This document shows positions 859-9,386 of a DNA stretch of 22,126 nt, piece by piece. The notes under the pieces are model-generated. The model worked only from the letters and a program-made list of their open reading frames with translations, was not told the origin of the DNA and did not search any database. This DNA is from a virus. The translations under genes and the position numbers were made by a program. Where the stretch lies: IMG/VR virus record IMGVR_UViG_3300046371_000199, positions 1 to 22,126 of that record; one strand, 5' to 3'. Every line of letters starts with the position of its first letter. The first letter of the stretch is position 1.

Positions 859-1052
859 TGAAGCCAACTAAAAAAGAAATTAAATTTATGGAAGCTTTAT
901 TACTTGCCATCACCGCACCTAGTGAAGAATACAAAGAAGAATGTATTCAAATGGCATCATCTATTGGCTCATCTCTTACTGAAAAGCAACGAGATTTAGC
1001 CATGAAAGGTGTTGAATGTCGCATTGAATATGCTCGGAGGTATGGCAAATGA
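858..1052 (+). CDS. Small early protein, unknown
   Basis: This 64-residue, Lys- and Glu-rich protein is probably mostly helical. I recognise no family and see no signal peptide or membrane segment. It starts within the stop of the acidic gene upstream (TAATG), and its own end overlaps the next gene by 4 bases, so it is an integral part of the early operon. The tight overlaps are the main support that it is a real gene. Confidence 0.65.
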   Translation: MKPTKKEIKFMEALLLAITAPSEEYKEECIQMASSIGSSLTEKQRDLAMKGVECRIEYARRYGK

Positions 1053-1900
1053 TTGAATCATTTGAAGTGATGCAAGTTACACCTGAGATAGCGTTATCTA
1101 TTCTTACAAATAAGAACTGTAAGAATAGGAATATATCTAAGGCTAATCTCCGCAACCTCACCAATGCAATGCTTAATGGTGAGTGGAAACTAACTAATCA
1201 AGGGATTAGTTTTGATAGGGAAGGCAACCTATTAGATGGGCAGCACCGGCTACAGGCAATCATTGAGTCTGAAGTCACGTGCACCATGCTTGTCGGTAAA
1301 AACATGGATCCTGCTATTTTTAACTGTATTGATACAGGTAAAGCAAGAACAGCAGGTGACACGTTAGATATTGCAGGCAGTACCAACGGCAAGACCATTG
1401 CTGCTGCTGTTAAGTTGGTTGGTTTCTATCAGGAGCTTGCACCTGATAACGCATGGTCTAGCTTTAACAAGCCGAGCCATGAAAAGATCAGGAAGAATTA
1501 TCTTAAAGAGAAAGACCTCTACGAAGAGGCAGCTATCACAGTAAGAGATAAGGCAAGACAAGGAAGACACTTACTACCTGCAAGTATTGTTGTTGCTTTC
1601 TATGTGCTTGCATCTAAACGTGGCTGGCCTGCTAGGAAGATTGATTTCTTTTTAGACAAGGTATATATAGGTGCAAGCCTGCAACCTGACGATGTATGCC
1701 TGTCATTTAGAAACCAGCTATCAGCTAGGGAGTACAAACGCAGGGGTGCTAACAGTCAAAGGTATTTGTTGAACGCTTTTATTAAATGCTTCAACACTAA
1801 TGCTAGTCACACTCCGACTAAGAAATTCTGGGCACCGCAAGACGGTTCAAATATGTACCAGATTAAGAAGTTCTCTCCAATACTAGAACTACCTAGTTAA
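1049..1900 (+). CDS. DGQHR-motif / ParB-fold-like protein
   Basis: This 283-residue protein has the motif LLDGQHRLQAIIES at residues 61-74, followed by a FNCIDTGKARTAGDTL segment around residues 91-106. This pairing is characteristic of phage proteins commonly annotated as ParB-like or DGQHR-domain proteins; the Gly-Gln-His-Arg block resembles the GEHRxxA nucleotide-binding motif of ParB. Residues about 110-230 look helical, and the C-terminus is basic (KEYKRRG-like). Family members have been proposed to be nucleases or nucleotide-binding proteins, but I know of no demonstrated role in this phage type. It overlaps the preceding gene by 4 bases and is the largest gene of the early block, ahead of the RNA polymerase. 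Confidence 0.75.
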   Translation: MIESFEVMQVTPEIALSILTNKNCKNRNISKANLRNLTNAMLNGEWKLTNQGISFDREGNLLDGQHRLQAIIESEVTCTMLVGKNMDPAIFNCIDTGKARTAGDTLDIAGSTNGKTIAAAVKLVGFYQELAPDNAWSSFNKPSHEKIRKNYLKEKDLYEEAAITVRDKARQGRHLLPASIVVAFYVLASKRGWPARKIDFFLDKVYIGASLQPDDVCLSFRNQLSAREYKRRGANSQRYLLNAFIKCFNTNASHTPTKKFWAPQDGSNMYQIKKFSPILELPS

Positions 1901-2958: not shown

Positions 2959-3163
2959 GCTAGTGCCACTGCAAACAAGAACATCACGTGACTATGCCGC
3001 AATGCTTAGTCACGTTGGTGATTTAAAAGGCATGAGCACCAGTGCTACTTGCCGCATGGCATTAGAAGATTGGTGTCGAACTAACTATCAAGAAGTTATT
3101 GACAAGCTGCTAGAAGAGCAGGCAGCACAACAAAAACTATTGAAGAAGTTAAGTGCAAGATGA
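2927..3163 (+). CDS. Third candidate ribbon-helix-helix protein
   Basis: This 78-residue protein has LVPLQTRTSRDYAAML (residues 12-27) followed by MSTSATCRMALEDWCR (35-50), consistent with an RHH strand and two helices, and then a Glu/Gln/Leu-rich segment (56-76) that looks like a coiled coil. The start is uncertain: ATG at 2927 gives a 32-base overlap with the gene upstream, while the in-frame ATG at 2939 gives 20 bases and removes only MSLP. Its 3' end overlaps the RNA polymerase start by 11 bases, so it may be coupled to polymerase translation. Confidence 0.55.
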   Translation: MSLPMTTPTNELVPLQTRTSRDYAAMLSHVGDLKGMSTSATCRMALEDWCRTNYQEVIDKLLEEQAAQQKLLKKLSAR

Positions 3164-5519
3164 AGTATTAGCTTACGAAAGCAGGATGATCTCTAATAGC
3201 GTGGACAACTCACGCTATGTAGAGAACCAGCTACAAACTAAGAAGATTCAGTCTCGCTCCAGATGGGGTGAGACTTTGTCAGTTGAAGGGTACTTAGGTA
3301 TCAAAGAACCCATTGATTACATAAAGAAAAGGGCTGAGTCTGGACATGCTGGTGTTGGATGGGCAAGACTCAAGCCACTGAACAATCTTCCCACTGAAAC
3401 CATAGCAGCTACAGTAATAAGGACAATCATTGACACTCTTACCCTTAACCCTAGCTTCTATACTGTCGCTAAAGAAATCAGTGACAGGCTATGGATTGAG
3501 TCAATGCTTACGGTAATAACTAAGGAAGATCTAGCTAGATATAACAGGAGCAGGCAGCGTAAGTCTCACAAACTCAAGGGCTTGCAGCACATGACTGGCA
3601 CTGTGCAATGGACAGCCAAGCAACAGATGTCAATAGGTGGGATGATGATCTATATAACAGAGAAACATACAGGTTTTATTGAGGTAGTAAGAGAAGATCT
3701 ACCACATAAAAAGCGTAGGATTATCAAGCCAACTGCTGCATGTATGGAGTGGATAGATAAATTCAAGGACAAGCAGGGTATATTAATCCCTCACTATCTA
3801 CCAACCATTGCACCTGGGCTACCATTTAATGAGCATGGATATGGTGGATACCATGACCCACGCTTGCAGATACCGTTACTGAAAACTAATAACGATGAGA
3901 TAGTCAAGCACCTGAAGGGTGACGAGCCATGCAAGAAAGCACCAGAGATACTTAGTGATGTTCCCTTCACTGTGAACACTTGGATATATAACGTAGCAGT
4001 TGAGGTAGTAAGAAAAGATTTAAAGGTAGGTGTGATCCAACCTAAACCAGAGATTGATCCTTACCCTAAAGGTAAAGATGATGACAGCCCTGAAGTATTA
4101 GCGTGGAGAAAGAAAGCTAAGAAGCAACACATACTAGAAGAGAAGACAAGGAACTCTAGGATTGCAGTCACTTGGCTACTGCACATAGCCGGTGAACTAA
4201 AGGAACAAGACGAGTTGTTCTTTTGCTGTCAGTTGGACAGCCGTGGAAGAATTTATTATCGGCCACCATATCTAAACCCACAAGGTAATGATCTAAGCAG
4301 GGCACTCTTGCAGTTCTCTTACTACAACTACATGCAGACAGATGAGCACGTGAACTGGTTGCGTGTGCATGGTGCAAATGTATATGGGTTAGGCAAGTCG
4401 GACTGGCAGACAAGAATTGATTGGGTGCTAGAGCACGAGCAATTAATATTGACTTGTGGAAATGACCCTTGGCTTGCCTTTAGTTTCTGGACTAGAGCAG
4501 AGAAACCATTTAGTTTCCTAGCTTTCTGTCGTACCTATTACGAGTGGAAACAAGAGGGGCCAACCTATAAATGCAGGCATCCAATAATTTTAGATGCCAC
4601 CTGTTCAGGTGTTCAGAATTTCGCTGGCTTACTCAGATCGCAAGAGATGGCAGAGCAGGTGAACCTCACGCAATCCGACAAGCCACAAGATATATATGCA
4701 GCAGTCGTTAACAAAATAAATGAAAGACTAAGACTAGATGGATGTGACGACAGCAAGAAATGGTTGATGCTACAACCTGATCGCAGTCTCACCAAACCCG
4801 CAGTGATGACAATACCCTACGCAGCTACGTACACTGCGTTCTATAAGTACGCCTATAACTGGGGTATTAAGAGAGCTAAAGATTTATACGGCAATACCTG
4901 TTGGCTTAACAAGACTGGATCAATGGGTACTGTTCACTTCATGGCTCGCATACTGCATGAAGAATCATCACGCATGATACAACCAGCAGTGCAAGCAATG
5001 AAATGGTTCAAGGCTATTGGTGTTAAAGCTGGTAAGAATAATATCCCTTTAAGGTGGACATCACCATCAGGATTATTAGTACATCAACAATACAATAGTA
5101 CAAAAGATAGTAGAGTTAGACTTAAGTATTTGTCAGACATTTACTTAGACATTAGGGTACAAGAAGACTGTCCTACACTGAACACTAACAAGATGGGCAA
5201 TGCTATCACTGCCAACCTATTGCATAGTTTCGACTCATCAATTATGGCCTTAACAATATTGAAATGTCGTAAGAAAAATGTTATAAATATAGGTGGAATC
5301 CATGATGCTTTTGTCACTGATCCCACCTCAATGAGTGTTGTTAGAGATGCAGCTAAAGAATCTTTTGTTGAGATATACAAGGATGATTGGCTGACTAAGA
5401 TCAAAGACACACTCAAAGCACAGATACCTGTGCACCTACAACTGGATCTACCAGCCGAGCCACAGCTAGGCGACTTCGATCCAAGCACTACCTTGTCCTC
5501 AAACTATTTCATTACTTAA
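3153..5519 (+). CDS. T7-type single-subunit DNA-directed RNA polymerase
   Basis: This 788-residue enzyme transcribes the phage middle and late genes from phage promoters. Catalytic landmarks of the family are all present: SRGRIYY (363-369), the metal-binding Asp in LDATCSGVQNF (D481; T7 D537), the O-helix RSLTKPAVMTIPY (544-556, with K548 and Y556 matching T7 K631 and Y639), and GIHDAF (H717, D718; T7 H811, D812). The specificity loop should be near residues 655-685. It is about 95 residues shorter than T7 RNAP, mainly at the N-terminus. The start is a GTG at 3153 overlapping the upstream gene by 11 bases; an in-frame ATG at 3186 is an alternative. Confidence 0.97.
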   Translation: MQDEVLAYESRMISNSVDNSRYVENQLQTKKIQSRSRWGETLSVEGYLGIKEPIDYIKKRAESGHAGVGWARLKPLNNLPTETIAATVIRTIIDTLTLNPSFYTVAKEISDRLWIESMLTVITKEDLARYNRSRQRKSHKLKGLQHMTGTVQWTAKQQMSIGGMMIYITEKHTGFIEVVREDLPHKKRRIIKPTAACMEWIDKFKDKQGILIPHYLPTIAPGLPFNEHGYGGYHDPRLQIPLLKTNNDEIVKHLKGDEPCKKAPEILSDVPFTVNTWIYNVAVEVVRKDLKVGVIQPKPEIDPYPKGKDDDSPEVLAWRKKAKKQHILEEKTRNSRIAVTWLLHIAGELKEQDELFFCCQLDSRGRIYYRPPYLNPQGNDLSRALLQFSYYNYMQTDEHVNWLRVHGANVYGLGKSDWQTRIDWVLEHEQLILTCGNDPWLAFSFWTRAEKPFSFLAFCRTYYEWKQEGPTYKCRHPIILDATCSGVQNFAGLLRSQEMAEQVNLTQSDKPQDIYAAVVNKINERLRLDGCDDSKKWLMLQPDRSLTKPAVMTIPYAATYTAFYKYAYNWGIKRAKDLYGNTCWLNKTGSMGTVHFMARILHEESSRMIQPAVQAMKWFKAIGVKAGKNNIPLRWTSPSGLLVHQQYNSTKDSRVRLKYLSDIYLDIRVQEDCPTLNTNKMGNAITANLLHSFDSSIMALTILKCRKKNVINIGGIHDAFVTDPTSMSVVRDAAKESFVEIYKDDWLTKIKDTLKAQIPVHLQLDLPAEPQLGDFDPSTTLSSNYFIT

Positions 5520-5523
5520 TCAA

Positions 5524-6153
5524 ATGGACTTCGTTGATTTAAAACCAATCCAACTGACAACACCTGACGACACATGCCTTACCTATTCATGGCTTGTTAA
5601 CGCAGACAGCAAGTATCCTCCTGCTAGATGGCAGACAACACTTGTTATTCCTAATAGCCCAAGGGCTGTTGAGATAGGAGAACAGTTAGATACTTTCTTT
5701 CTGAACTTTAAGAAAGCATTGAAGGCTGCCTACCCTGACAAGAAGAAGGAAGACTACAAGTGGAATGAACTCCCTTGGAAATGGGAAGACCACGAAGAAT
5801 TAAAACTTAAGAACGCTTTGATCCTCAAGTGCAACAAGAAGACGCACTCACCAGAGGGCACACCTAAAGCACCTCCAATAATTTTTGATAGCAGCCAGAA
5901 GGAACCACTAAACGATGAGCAGAAAGCAAAGTATGACAAGATTGGCCCTGGTACTACAGCACAAGTAGCCCTGTATGTCAGTCAATACAATCTGAGTGTC
6001 GGTACTGGATGCAGACTTACACCTGCTGCTGTCAACATCAAGAACTTTATACCTTTTGGAAGTCAGGCTAATACAGCAGAGGACTGGGGATTCACAGTTG
6101 ATGCACCACAACAGGGAACAGGAACCCCATCAACAAATGACTTCGACTTCTAA
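5524..6153 (+). CDS. Single-stranded DNA-binding protein (gp2.5-like)
   Basis: This 209-residue protein lies immediately after the RNA polymerase and before the junction endonuclease, the place of T7 gene 2.5. Its length is close to T7 gp2.5 (232) and it ends in an acidic Phe-terminated tail, TNDFDF, the feature that in gp2.5 contacts the replisome and regulates DNA binding. The body is beta-rich with many aromatic residues, consistent with an OB fold. The acidic tail is short and weakly charged compared with T7. The coding sequence overlaps the endonuclease start by 17 bases. Role: coating ssDNA and promoting annealing and replication. Confidence 0.85.
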   Translation: MDFVDLKPIQLTTPDDTCLTYSWLVNADSKYPPARWQTTLVIPNSPRAVEIGEQLDTFFLNFKKALKAAYPDKKKEDYKWNELPWKWEDHEELKLKNALILKCNKKTHSPEGTPKAPPIIFDSSQKEPLNDEQKAKYDKIGPGTTAQVALYVSQYNLSVGTGCRLTPAAVNIKNFIPFGSQANTAEDWGFTVDAPQQGTGTPSTNDFDF

Positions 6154-6505
6154 TAAATACAGAAGCAAGTTTGAAGCTTCAATCGCTGCTAACTTACATG
6201 CAAAAAATGTTGCGTTCACCTACGAATCCATACGACTGGAGTACACCCTCGAAGGGACGTATGTACCCGATTTCATACTACCTTCGGGCGTACTGGTCGA
6301 AGCGAAAGGCCACCTCCGTACGGAAGATAGACGCAAACTACGTGCAGTTAAGACGCAACATCCCCATTTAGATATACGCCTCTGCTTTCAGAACGCTAAC
6401 GAAAAGATTAGCAAGAAGAAAAATAGTATGCGGTACTACGAATGGTGTGACCGCAATGGTTTCAAGTGGTGTCACAAAGTAATACCTGCTGATTGGTATG
6501 GATAA
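6137..6505 (+). CDS. Holliday-junction endonuclease I (gp3-like)
   Basis: I place the start at ATG 6137, giving 122 residues; the open frame reaches upstream to 5996, but those 47 codons lie inside the SSB gene and look unlike protein. The T7 gp3 active-site pattern is clear: FEASIAANL (E13), PDFILPSGVLVEAKG (D45, E55, K57), matching T7 E20, D55, E65 and K67. The enzyme resolves branched DNA during replication and packaging and degrades host DNA in T7. It is shorter than T7 gp3 (149). Its codon use differs from its neighbours: Arg is mostly CGN rather than AGA/AGG, and CG dinucleotides are dense around 6225-6360. Confidence 0.93.
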   Translation: MTSTSNKYRSKFEASIAANLHAKNVAFTYESIRLEYTLEGTYVPDFILPSGVLVEAKGHLRTEDRRKLRAVKTQHPHLDIRLCFQNANEKISKKKNSMRYYEWCDRNGFKWCHKVIPADWYG

Positions 6506-6692
6506 AGAAATCAGATGGATAAAGGGCAGACTCTACCGAGAGGAATGTCCTGGCAACTGGGAGCCGTATGATCCTGACGCACCTCCTGATACAGAGAGAG
6601 TGCAGAACATTAAGAAACGCAGGGCTGAACTTCAGACCATGCTTGACCACATAAGAAAAGCTACTAATGAATTACAGAACAACAGGGAGTGA
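6498..6692 (+). CDS. Small protein between gp3 and gp4, unknown
   Basis: This 64-residue charged protein has an N-terminal segment with several Trp and Pro residues (WIKGRLYREECPGNWEPYDP) and a helical, basic C-terminal half rich in Arg, Glu and Leu. No family is recognised. It overlaps the endonuclease end by 8 bases. In T7 the corresponding interval encodes lysozyme gp3.5, which this is not: it is far too short and lacks the zinc-amidase motifs. Confidence 0.6.
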   Translation: MDKEIRWIKGRLYREECPGNWEPYDPDAPPDTERVQNIKKRRAELQTMLDHIRKATNELQNNRE

Positions 6693-6861
6693 CCTTACTT
6701 ATAAATATAGGGTTCGTGTCCTCACTCCTAGAAACGAGAAGTTCGATGAGTACATCATCGCAGCTAATAAAGAGAGAGCCAAGCGAGCACTGCTTGATAA
6801 GTATGGCAAGGATCATAAGGCTCTTGTCCTAGACCAGGAGCCAGGCAGTGTCTTCAAGTAA
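6667..6861 (+). CDS. Small basic protein upstream of primase, unknown
   Basis: This 64-residue protein is rich in Lys and Arg, with alternating hydrophobic and charged residues at the start (YKYRVRVLTP) and an AANKERAKRALLDKYG helix, suggesting a small alpha/beta fold. No family is recognised. It overlaps the preceding gene by 26 bases and the primase start by 14, so it is locked into the operon. The long overlap leaves the ATG at 6667 somewhat uncertain. Confidence 0.55.
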   Translation: MNYRTTGSDLTYKYRVRVLTPRNEKFDEYIIAANKERAKRALLDKYGKDHKALVLDQEPGSVFK

Positions 6862-8470
6862 GGAAGTAAGCAGAGGGCCATGTCCACAGCCTGACTGCGA
6901 TACCGATCATGGCAACGTCACCTTCGATGACGGGCATACACATTGCTACGCCTGCGACACAACTGTTCAACCTGAAAGACTAAAGAAACCTGACCCACTA
7001 CCAACACCTGCTGCACAAAGGAGCAAGTTACTTAAAAACCTGCAACCTTTTAAGAAAGAGTGGTGTGGTATCACTGTCGAAACTCTTAACTTCTTTAGTT
7101 ATTGCCAAGCTTTCTATCGTGAGCAGCAGGTACACGTTGCTACTTATAACGATCAGCAAGGACTGCCATGTGCACAGCACCTACGATTTAGAGACAAGAG
7201 ATTTATCTGGATCTCTAATGATGGCATAAGTAACCTGCAATTCTGGGCACAAAGCAAGTGGCGGCAGAACCACGGCAGAGAATCCAATGTGTTCTGTGTA
7301 ATTACAGAAGGCGAGAAGGATTGTATGTCAGTGAGTCAGGTACAAGGCAACAAGTTTCCTGTCGTATCACTGCCTTCAGGTACACAGTCAGTTAAGAAAG
7401 CAATAGGTGCAAACCTTAAGTGGCTGAGTCAATTCGCATGGGTGGTCATCTGCTTTGACAATGACACACCAGGAATCCAGGCCAGTCAAACTGCCTTGGA
7501 ACTATTACCAGCAGGCAAGGCGGCTATCTGTCGCATCCCTGATCCATACAAGGATGCCAACGACATGCTCGTTGATGGTAAAGGTGCAGAGTTAAAGGAT
7601 CTCTTATGGAAGGCAGTCCCAAGCAGGCCAGATTCTATAAAAGAGGCATCAACCTTATGGGATGTACTAATAGAACCTAATGCCAAGGCTATTGTTCACT
7701 TGCCTTGGACTGAACTCAATGAGAAATGCAGAGGCTTTCGTTCTAATGAGATGTGGTGTATAGCAGCAGGTTCAGGTACTGGTAAGAGTACGGTATGTAG
7801 AGAATTAGCGTATCACTTCCTATCTCAGAACTTAAAGGTAGGGTATATAGCTTTGGAAGAAAGTCTCAAGCGTAGCTTGCAAGGAATTGTAGGGGTTGCA
7901 CTTAACAAGCCTTTGCATTTAGATGAGAGTGTCGAGATCCCCATCATCAAGTCGGCTTTTGATTCCCTCTTAGGATCAGGCCGACTTTTTTTATACGATC
8001 ATTTCGGATCTTGTAATCCCGACACCCTCATTGAAAAGATTACATACCTCGCAACCGTTGAAGAAGTTGATGTTGTAATACTTGACCATCTAACCATCGT
8101 TGTCTCAGGGATCGCAGACCTAGATGAGAGAAGGGCTTTGGATGTTACGTGTACCAAGCTGAGACAGTGCGTTGAATCTACTGGTATAGGTTTAATAATT
8201 GTGTCGCACCTCCGTAGACCTGAAGGTAAGGGACATGAAGAGGGAGTGAAGGTATCACTTAATCATTTAAGAGGTAGCCACAGCATTGCCCAACTAAGTG
8301 ACATGGTAATTAGCTGCTCCAGAAACCAGTCGGGTGACGCTGGTGAGCGTAGCCAGTTGCAGTTAGGTGTACTCAAGAATAGATTTAGTGGCTCAACAGG
8401 GGATGCCGACACCCTGCTCTATGACGAGAAGACTGGTCGCCTAGTACAACAAACAACTTTCTTCCAATGA
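6848..8470 (+). CDS. DNA primase/helicase (gp4-like)
   Basis: This 540-residue enzyme makes RNA primers and unwinds the fork. A zinc-binding domain (C12, C17, C33, C36) is followed by a TOPRIM primase (TEGEKD, E154; CFDNDTPG, D204 and D206; KDANDML) and a RecA-like hexameric helicase: Walker A GSGTGKST (308-315), ALEES (335-339), Walker B VVILDH (409-414), SHLRRPEGKGH (453-463) and arginine finger KNRFSG (R512). The C-terminus stops at GRLVQQTTFFQ, right after the helicase core, so the acidic Phe-ended tail of T7 gp4 (566 aa) that binds DNA polymerase is missing. The start is GTG; no in-frame ATG occurs before residue 160. The stop overlaps the exonuclease start (ATGA). Confidence 0.96.
   Translation: MSSSKEVSRGPCPQPDCDTDHGNVTFDDGHTHCYACDTTVQPERLKKPDPLPTPAAQRSKLLKNLQPFKKEWCGITVETLNFFSYCQAFYREQQVHVATYNDQQGLPCAQHLRFRDKRFIWISNDGISNLQFWAQSKWRQNHGRESNVFCVITEGEKDCMSVSQVQGNKFPVVSLPSGTQSVKKAIGANLKWLSQFAWVVICFDNDTPGIQASQTALELLPAGKAAICRIPDPYKDANDMLVDGKGAELKDLLWKAVPSRPDSIKEASTLWDVLIEPNAKAIVHLPWTELNEKCRGFRSNEMWCIAAGSGTGKSTVCRELAYHFLSQNLKVGYIALEESLKRSLQGIVGVALNKPLHLDESVEIPIIKSAFDSLLGSGRLFLYDHFGSCNPDTLIEKITYLATVEEVDVVILDHLTIVVSGIADLDERRALDVTCTKLRQCVESTGIGLIIVSHLRRPEGKGHEEGVKVSLNHLRGSHSIAQLSDMVISCSRNQSGDAGERSQLQLGVLKNRFSGSTGDADTLLYDEKTGRLVQQTTFFQ
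7949..7992 (+). terminator. Terminator-like hairpin inside the primase/helicase gene
   Basis: AAGTCGGC (7949-7956) pairs perfectly with GCCGACTT (7980-7987), and the bases run straight into seven T residues (7986-7992). Inside, TGAT-CC pairs with GGATCA with one bulged T. This has the shape of an intrinsic terminator but lies in frame within the helicase domain, between Walker A and Walker B. Only the + strand has the T tract. Whether it stops host-type or phage polymerase is unknown. Confidence 0.55.
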
Positions 8471-9207
8471 CTCTACTAATAGATGCTGACATGCTTGTTT
8501 ACTCTGCCTGCTGTGCAAGTGAGCAAGACTTCAAGTTCAACGACTATCAACACGTACTTGTATCAGATGAACGTGATGCGTTGGACTATGTAGCTATGAA
8601 GCTAGAAGAATATCAGTCCATCACTGGTGATAGAGGCAAGATCATCATGTGTTTCTCTGACTATCCCACCTTTAGACATGAAGTATATAGCGAGTACAAA
8701 GCTAATCGAATAGGCAAGCGTAAACCCTTGGCATTTAAAGATGTAGCTGAAGCAGTGAGAAGGTATCACGATGTCGCTGTCTATCCCAACCTTGAAGCGG
8801 ATGATGTGATGGGCATACTTGCAACTGAGGAGCAGCACCCTACTCGTGTCATAGTTTCAGGTGATAAAGATATGAAGACCATACCCTGTATTCTTCTGAG
8901 GAATGGAGAACTTGAAACCATTTCTGAAAAGAGGGCAGATAGAAACTGGATGTCGCAGGTATTGCAAGGGGATCGAACGGATAATATTCCTGGCCTTGTA
9001 GGTGTCGGGCCAAAAACTGCTGAAAAAATTTTGGGAGATTCCGAGACTCTTTCTGATATGTGGGACAAGGTGATAGGTGCATACGAGAAGAGGAAACTTA
9101 CATACAAATCAGCATTGCTTTCAGCACGACTCACTAGAATCTTGAGACATGGGGAGTACAATTTACATAAGCAAGAAGTATCCCTCTGGGAGCCGCCCAC
9201 CACATGA
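8467..9207 (+). CDS. 5'-3' exonuclease, FEN/T7 gp6 type
   Basis: This 246-residue nuclease has the metal-binding acids of the FEN superfamily in order: LLIDADML (D6, D8), MCFSDYPTFRHEVYSEYKANR (D65 and the basic arch), NLEADDVMG (E110, D112, D113), VSGDKDMK (D133, D135) and LQGDRTDNIPG (D169, D172), then a helix-hairpin-helix GVGPKTAEKIL (179-189). T7 gp6 (about 300 aa) removes RNA primers and degrades host DNA to feed phage synthesis; the same roles are inferred. Its ATG overlaps the primase stop. In T7 the DNA polymerase gene lies between these two; here there is no space for one. Confidence 0.93.
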   Translation: MTLLIDADMLVYSACCASEQDFKFNDYQHVLVSDERDALDYVAMKLEEYQSITGDRGKIIMCFSDYPTFRHEVYSEYKANRIGKRKPLAFKDVAEAVRRYHDVAVYPNLEADDVMGILATEEQHPTRVIVSGDKDMKTIPCILLRNGELETISEKRADRNWMSQVLQGDRTDNIPGLVGVGPKTAEKILGDSETLSDMWDKVIGAYEKRKLTYKSALLSARLTRILRHGEYNLHKQEVSLWEPPTT

Positions 9208-9386
9208 TCGACGAAGAACTCTGGCCTCCAATAGATGAGGTACTCATTAGGAAACTAGAAGAGATCTACCCTGATAAATGTCCATCGATAGATGCACATG
9301 ACCGAGAGATATGGAGGTACGGTGGACAGGTAGAACTAGTAAGAATGTTGCGATCTGTATATAATGAGCAGAACAACATCGAATAG
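9204..9386 (+). CDS. Small conserved phage protein after the exonuclease
   Basis: This 60-residue protein resembles short conserved proteins I recall from many phages, with a core of the form LxxxYPDKCPxxxxxDREIWxxGGQxxLV (here residues 18-46). Its function is unknown. It is acidic and probably helical. It overlaps the exonuclease stop by 4 bases and ends the replication module 2 bases before the first presumed virion gene. Confidence 0.65.
   Translation: MIDEELWPPIDEVLIRKLEEIYPDKCPSIDAHDREIWRYGGQVELVRMLRSVYNEQNNIE

What the first reader, a model, noticed from the sequence alone, without database searches (positions are those of the whole stretch)
8440..8500. No DNA polymerase gene in a T7-like replication module
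Seen: the primase/helicase stop and exonuclease ATG overlap (ATGA at 8467-8470), and no other frame in the window has family A polymerase motifs. Known: in T7 and most cyanopodoviruses a polymerase of about 2 kb lies between them. Inferred: this phage borrows the host polymerase while supplying its own SSB, primase/helicase, primer-removing nuclease and resolvase. I recall a published report of a marine cyanopodovirus lineage lacking a DNA polymerase gene; this window may belong to it, and I have not checked.
Basis: partly seen in the sequence, partly recalled or inferred. Interest (0 to 1): 0.8.

Follow-up and report, generated by a model that had tools for sequence, protein, structure and literature searches.

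The report
T7-like phage without DNA polymerase
This marine virus fragment belongs with an already described group of cyanobacterial viruses that lack their own DNA-copying enzyme and presumably borrow the host's, and its helicase also lacks the tail that would normally hold that enzyme.

Summary
Primase/helicase gp4 (6848-8470) and 5' exonuclease (8467-9207) overlap by ATGA with no polymerase between. Three other IMG/VR contigs, 99.96-99.98% identical, share the overlap, so misassembly is unlikely. Family A polymerase is absent from 70 of 70 polymerase-less relatives' records searched and from isolates P-SCSP1u and P-SCSP2; 18 of 18 polymerase-bearing records rang. Three of four records checked have overlapping ends. 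The window groups with P-SCSP1u and P-SCSP2, the published MPP-C clade lacking DNA pol (PMC9860041), so the main finding is known.

Not found in print: T7 gp4's acidic tail docks the polymerase. Of distinct gp4s, 0 of 151 polymerase-less and 123 of 125 polymerase-bearing end in F, Y or W. SSB keeps its aromatic end in 108 of 108 polymerase-less cases, though less acidic on average. The gp4 and exonuclease trees support one loss, so this counts as one event; RNA polymerase and portal trees do not recover one clade but do not reject it. Use of a host polymerase is inferred; which one is unknown.

The parts
3153..5519 (+). T7-type single-subunit RNA polymerase (start codon uncertain)
   Evidence: phrog_414, E 1e-158
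5524..6153 (+). gp2.5-type single-stranded DNA-binding protein
   Evidence: phrog_112, E 2.7e-8; at E 1e-3 it matches 135 of 201 polymerase-less loci, 3 of 53 undetermined and 0 of 160 polymerase-bearing
6133..6150 (+). acidic-aromatic C-terminal end of the SSB (TNDFDF), retained
   Evidence: Sequence; all 108 distinct SSBs of polymerase-less loci end in F, Y or W
6137..6505 (+). endonuclease I (Holliday-junction resolvase, T7 gp3 type); start inferred
   Evidence: phrog_945, E 2.1e-41, residues 47-168 of ORF 5996-6505
6848..8470 (+). primase/helicase (T7 gp4 type)
   Evidence: phrog_239, E 4.8e-150; T7 gp4 6n7i_A, E 1.5e-81; 52.1% identical to P-SCSP1a
8444..8467 (+). last 8 codons of gp4 after TGRL (VQQTTFFQ): short non-acidic end where T7 gp4 has 24 more residues
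   Evidence: Alignment to T7 gp4 ends at window residue 532 = T7 residue 542 of 566; T7 sequence end; model pLDDT under 50 at residues 537-540
8467..8470 (+). ATGA overlap of gp4 stop and exonuclease start, where polymerase-bearing relatives carry a family A polymerase
8467..9207 (+). 5'-3' exonuclease (T7 gp6 type)
   Evidence: phrog_107, E 3.4e-56

Best explanation
The window is part of a marine T7-like phage of the MPP-C group. An ancestor of its gp4-exonuclease module lost the gene 5 DNA polymerase, most likely once, and the polymerase-docking tail of gp4 was lost on the same branch. The rest of the T7 replication set stayed: RNA polymerase, SSB with its aromatic tail, primase/helicase core, 5' exonuclease and resolvase. 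DNA synthesis must then be done by a host polymerase. I think the phage helicase/primase opens the fork and primes, and host Pol III (or Pol I, started from phage RNA polymerase transcripts) extends without the T7-style helicase tail contact. Shown: no detectable polymerase, gp4 tail lost, SSB tail kept, one clade in the gp4 and exonuclease trees. Inferred: one genome-wide event, use of a host enzyme, which one, and how it is recruited.
For: PF00476: none in the window, in 47 of 47 IMG/VR records plus P-SCSP1u and P-SCSP2, or in 23 of 23 further polymerase-less records; all 18 polymerase-bearing records in those two calls ring. PF00136 and PF07733: none in 20 of 20 records, controls ring in 5 and 10 of 14 genomes. 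G021 has overlapping ends (394 of 410 bases identical) and no DNA polymerase among the Pfam and PHROG families shown for 34 of its 38 called ORFs. Polymerase-less rows are one clade in gp4 (100/100), exonuclease (99), capsid (92) and six-gene (100) trees. gp4 tail: 0 of 151 against 123 of 125 ending in F/Y/W; mean net acidic residues in the last 12: 0.08 against 3.47; residues after TGRL: median 10 (6-12, n 151) against 18 (11-26, n 121 with the anchor). Role of the T7 tail: PMC8472574 and PMC12593628 (passages).
Against: No host dependence was tested. RNA polymerase and portal trees do not put the polymerase-less rows in one clade; holding them together is not rejected (p-AU 0.080 and 0.058), so mosaic genomes, or more than one history, stay possible. 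The tail-polymerase correlation rests on about one event, and a single deletion running into the end of gene 4 explains it without any functional argument. The SSB tail control is imperfect: polymerase-less SSBs are less acidic (mean net 2.25 against 4.14 in the last 12) and 7 of 103 polymerase-bearing SSBs do not end in an aromatic. Profile searches cannot exclude an unknown type of polymerase; for G021 only the best 25 of 36 Pfam and 25 of 69 PHROG families were shown. PF03175 was uninformative, because its control rang nowhere.
Confidence: 0.84

Rival explanations
1. The phage encodes a DNA polymerase too divergent for profiles to see, in one of the large unannotated ORFs.
For: Cai et al. 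list this as their third possibility. Large ORFs without clear function exist: 757 and 2493 aa in G021, 1049 aa (cut by the end) in the window.
Against: These ORFs lie after the tail genes, where internal virion proteins sit in T7-like genomes (position argument, recalled and as). All three have no polymerase hit in Pfam at E up to 1. Loss of the polymerase-docking gp4 tail fits no T7-like polymerase partner, though an unrelated polymerase might not need it.
Confidence: 0.08
2. The gp4-exonuclease adjacency is an assembly artefact or a defective genome.
For: The window is a metagenomic fragment.
Against: Three other contigs are 99.96-99.98% identical through the junction. The cultured phage P-SCSP1u has the same 4-base overlap. 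132 of 156 distinct polymerase-less junctions are 30 bases or less.
Confidence: 0.01
3. The polymerase was lost more than once, or the polymerase-less gp4-exonuclease module spread by recombination between separate phage lineages.
For: RNA polymerase and portal trees split the polymerase-less rows into a P-SCSP2 side and a P-SCSP1u/window side that are not sisters in the best tree.
Against: gp4, exonuclease, capsid and six-gene trees hold them together, and one clade is not rejected for RNA polymerase or portal. Long branches are present. Two separate losses would have to give the same tail loss in gp4.
Confidence: 0.25
4. The phage uses the polymerase of a co-infecting phage rather than a host enzyme.
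For: None found; it would also explain the missing gene.
Against: Cai et al. isolated MPP-C phages on Prochlorococcus MED4 and report their latent periods there, so they grow without a known helper.
Confidence: 0.02

Closest known systems
MPP-C cyanopodoviruses (P-SCSP1a-u, P-SCSP2; Cai et al., PMC9860041)
   Same: No DNA polymerase; P-SCSP1u has the same 4-base gp4/exonuclease overlap and the order RNA polymerase - (SSB, annotated hypothetical) - endonuclease I - gp4 - exonuclease; one clade in the six-gene tree.
   Different: gp4 only 52.1% identical to P-SCSP1a and 49.8% to P-SCSP2; no nucleotide match by megablast in the phage collection. Two close relatives with overlapping ends are about 40 kb, above the published 37.3-37.9 kb.
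uncultured phage MedDCM-OCT-S08-C159 (genus Jalkavirus)
   Same: gp4 51.1% identical; same 4-base overlap and no polymerase between.
   Different: A 10.3-kb fragment, on the P-SCSP2 side of the clade.
Polymerase-bearing T7-like phages (T7, Syn5, S-TIP28, P-SSP7, P-RSP2, CRP-804, HTVC109P)
   Same: Homologous RNA polymerase, gp4 and exonuclease in similar order.
   Different: They carry a family A polymerase between gp4 and exonuclease, and their gp4 ends in an acidic tail with a terminal F or Y.

Membership tests
MPP-C cyanopodovirus clade | No identifiable DNA polymerase gene | tested here: met
   Window; relatives. The window itself is a fragment.
MPP-C cyanopodovirus clade | Falls within the clade spanned by P-SCSP1 and P-SCSP2 | tested here: met
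   Six-gene tree, 32 rows: polymerase-less clade SH-aLRT 100, window on the P-SCSP1u side, P-SCSP2 across the deepest fork (quick method, no bootstrap). Against: in the gp4 tree the window's cluster mate L085 is beside, not inside, a group (95/95) holding both P-SCSP1u and P-SCSP2. RNA polymerase, portal and capsid trees put the window with P-SCSP1u.
MPP-C cyanopodovirus clade | Genome 37.3-37.9 kb | tested here: inconclusive
   The window is incomplete; relatives with overlapping ends are about 40.0 (G021), 40.1 (G018) and 35.8 kb (G022).
MPP-C cyanopodovirus clade | No auxiliary metabolic genes | tested here: inconclusive
   None among the G021 families shown, but those lists were cut at 25.
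MPP-C cyanopodovirus clade | Infects Prochlorococcus | not testable with these tools
   The genome-contig scan gave two contigs of an unassigned MAG and one Rhizobium contig at 30% identity; no host link.
T7-type replisome | Phage-encoded family A polymerase | tested here: not met
T7-type replisome | gp4 with acidic, aromatic C-terminal tail | tested here: not met
T7-type replisome | gp2.5-type SSB with acidic, aromatic tail | tested here: met
   PHROG match E 2.7e-8; window ends TNDFDF; no solved structure at E below 0.7
T7-type replisome | Bifunctional primase/helicase with zinc, Toprim and helicase motifs | tested here: met
   C12, C17, C33, C36, EGE 154-156, DxD 204-206, GSGTGKST 308-315, LDH 412-414 in alignment A2; motif names recalled. 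T7 gp4 match E 1.5e-81.

The most novel reading that the evidence does not exclude
After losing its polymerase and the acidic docking tail, the helicase of this clade evolved a new short C-terminal peptide that grips the host replisome, possibly the sliding clamp or clamp loader. All 151 distinct polymerase-less gp4s keep a phenylalanine at the second to fifth residue from the end, never the last, and 86 of 151 have an F, Y or L directly before an F there, against 0 of 125 polymerase-bearing ones. Forms such as QTTFFQ, RLVLPLSNYFGD and RLKLPLFAL to my eye recall bacterial clamp-binding motifs (recalled, not tested). If so, a T7-type replisome was rewired from a dedicated polymerase to the host's.
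Probability: 0.12. Interest if true: 0.78.

Novelty: new member of a known kind. Interest (0 to 1): 0.38.

Why it matters
How MPP-C phages, reported as almost half of cyanopodovirus reads in the global surface ocean (PMC9860041, discussion), copy their DNA without a polymerase is open. The joint absence of the polymerase and of the helicase tail that holds it points to real replisome rewiring rather than a hidden T7-like polymerase, and names one short peptide to test. It also suggests a sequence signature (gp4 stopping within 12 residues of TGRL) for recognising such phages from a fragment, so far tested only on the loci used to find it.

Tried and rejected
Hidden polymerase of another family: PF00136 and PF07733 negative with working controls; PF03175 gave no information because its control rang nowhere. 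Repeated independent losses, which would have strengthened the tail correlation: not shown; gp4, exonuclease, capsid and six-gene trees give one clade, RNA polymerase and portal trees do not but do not reject it. A small protein replacing polymerase recruitment: the ORFs just before gp4 (window 6498-6692 and 6667-6861) match only 28 and 26 of 201 polymerase-less loci; a different ORF holds that place on the P-SCSP2 side (76 loci); not pursued. Host from genome contigs: no usable link. The SSB found no solved structure. The gp4 model (mean pLDDT 81.7, pTM 0.51) shows only that the last residues lie past the final strand with low confidence; no fold search was run.

Flaws of my own: the endonuclease query was read in a wrong frame and its counts are not used. 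In one search my ORF picker took a wrong frame at the endonuclease of G021, and 4 of 38 called ORFs (59-75 aa) were not scanned. In the gp4 tree the window's protein (listed as L094) was left out in favour of its cluster mate L085; the window appears under its own name.

Full report
Observation. The gp4 ORF (6848-8470) and the exonuclease ORF (8467-9207) overlap by four bases, ATGA at 8467-8470. The window is the whole record, 22,126 bases, and PF00476 (family A DNA polymerase) finds nothing in it while ringing in 10 of 14 control genomes. PHROGs names the neighbours: RNA polymerase, gp2.5-like SSB, endonuclease, primase/helicase, exonuclease, major head protein.

Not an artefact. L004, L005 and L006, from three other IMG/VR contigs, align through the junction at 99.96-99.98% identity with the same overlap. 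Cultured phage P-SCSP1u has gp4 at 4724-6343 and exonuclease at 6340-7083, the same 4-base overlap.

Not seen in the right arm of relatives. G002 is 99.9% identical to the window over 17.4 kb and adds 9.7 kb beyond its end. G021 (gp4 88% identical) has ends that overlap by 410 bases, 394 identical; G018 and G022 also have overlapping ends, G009 does not. I searched PF00476 in 47 IMG/VR records behind gp4 relatives plus P-SCSP1u, P-SCSP2 and CRP-804: only CRP-804, the positive control, rang. In a second set of 40 records, chosen by status at the locus, 23 polymerase-less ones had none anywhere and 17 of 17 polymerase-bearing ones rang. PF00136 and PF07733 found nothing in 20 of 20 records. PF03175 was uninformative. 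In G021, 34 of 38 called ORFs were scanned together with Pfam and PHROGs and no DNA polymerase was among the families shown, but only the best 25 of 36 and 25 of 69 families are printed; 14 of the 34 were then scanned individually at E up to 1 and no polymerase was shown.

Known lineage. Of 3292 phage records (of 50,697) matching gp4 by tblastn, the best are the 17 P-SCSP1 isolates (52.1%), MedDCM-OCT-S08-C159 (51.1%) and P-SCSP2 (49.8%); megablast of the window finds no match. P-SCSP1 and P-SCSP2 make up the MPP-C clade reported to lack DNA pol (PMC9860041; abstract, outline and sections 5, 6, 7 and 10 read). In a six-gene tree of 32 genomes or loci (RNA polymerase, gp4, exonuclease, portal, capsid, tail tube A, with gaps where a locus was too short) all 19 polymerase-less rows form one clade (SH-aLRT 100). 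P-SCSP1u and P-SCSP2 lie on opposite sides of its deepest fork and the window sits on the P-SCSP1u side next to G021.

Where the trees disagree. The gp4 tree of 69 representatives also gives one polymerase-less clade (15 rows, 100/100), but inside it P-SCSP1u lies with P-SCSP2 (group 95/95) and the window's cluster mate beside them. Single-gene trees of 17-20 rows keep the polymerase-less rows together for gp4 (100), exonuclease (99) and capsid (92); for RNA polymerase and portal the best tree splits a P-SCSP2 side from the P-SCSP1u/window side, and one clade is not rejected (p-AU 0.080 and 0.058). So one loss is best supported for the two genes that flank the missing polymerase, while the genomes may be mosaics.

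Beyond the finding: the helicase tail. [quoted passage not shown] gp4 lacking 17 C-terminal residues has processivity of about 5 instead of 17 kb (passages of PMC8472574 and PMC12593628). The window's gp4 aligns to T7 gp4 up to residue 532 (T7 542) and then has 8 residues where T7 has 24. I took gp4 from the 414 records then held (window and loci up to L413): 361 had a readable gp4 of 300 aa or more with its stop, giving 285 distinct proteins; loci without one were dropped. Of 151 from polymerase-less loci none ends in F, Y or W; of 125 from polymerase-bearing loci 123 do; 9 were undetermined (7 end in F, 2 in I). Mean net acidic residues in the last 12 are 0.08 and 3.47. The two exceptions, L240 and L242, end in MDFE. 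The SSB serves as an internal control: 108 of 108 distinct polymerase-less SSBs end in an aromatic, as do 96 of 103 polymerase-bearing and 12 of 14 undetermined ones; four short matches were dropped. It is not a clean control, because polymerase-less SSBs are less acidic (mean net 2.25 against 4.14). The helicase tail is thus lost far more completely than the SSB tail. It may be one event, and a single deletion reaching into the end of gene 4 is the simplest cause. PMC9860041 does not contain 'C-terminal' in its main text, and I saw no paper reporting this in the listings, of which searches showed 12 of 19 and 20 of 54 papers; the library lacks most subscription journals.

Mechanism. Shown: no detectable polymerase, helicase tail lost, SSB aromatic end kept, gp4 core motifs intact. 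Inferred: a host polymerase copies the genome. Cai et al. propose Pol I, Pol III or a divergent polymerase. The tail loss argues mildly against a hidden T7-like polymerase. I cannot choose between Pol I and Pol III.

The old polymerase slot. In 24 of 156 distinct polymerase-less junctions the space is 31-919 bases. I opened 19 loci, two of them with gaps under 30 bases, and scanned six ORFs from the gaps with Pfam: a Mom-family DNA modification protein (L031; a similar ORF in L102 not scanned), an N6/N4 DNA methylase (L079), an NrdR-like zinc ribbon (L142), a double-psi beta-barrel protein (L125), a weak helix-turn-helix hit (L125) and one without a hit (L013).

Verdict. The absence itself is already known; the window is a new member of that lineage. 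The helicase-tail loss is a modest, testable addition.

Noticed in passing
L031, L102, L079, L142, L125 between gp4 and exonuclease: The former polymerase slot carries cargo in some relatives: Mom-family DNA modification protein (L031; L102 by eye), N6/N4 methylase, NrdR-like zinc ribbon, double-psi beta-barrel protein.
   Followed up: partly
L122, L124, L128, L130, L134, L136, L151: Polymerase-less relatives with 60-62% GC, against 41% in the window and 39% in P-SCSP1u; L128, L130 and L134 lie inside the P-SCSP1u/P-SCSP2 span in the six-gene tree, L122 outside it in the gp4 tree. From GC alone I guess hosts other than MED4-like Prochlorococcus.
   Followed up: partly
RNA polymerase and portal against gp4, exonuclease and capsid trees: Conflicting branching suggests mosaic genomes among polymerase-less phages.
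   Followed up: partly
window 1049-1900: 283-aa early ORF of phrog_5931 (unknown function) with a DGQHRL motif that recalls ParB-like proteins (recalled); no Pfam hit at E up to 1.
   Followed up: no
L414, L415 (MAG bacterium TMED161): Two contigs of one marine MAG encode gp4 relatives at 51% and 48% identity; probably phage contigs binned with the MAG.
   Followed up: no
G026 (56,384 bases): Longest record with a gp4 relative; the other polymerase-less records of 34 kb or more are 34.4-41.2 kb. Possibly a chimera or concatemer.
   Followed up: no
window 9204-9386: 60-aa ORF after the exonuclease; it matches 177 of 201 polymerase-less loci but 12 of 160 polymerase-bearing ones; function unknown.
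   Followed up: no
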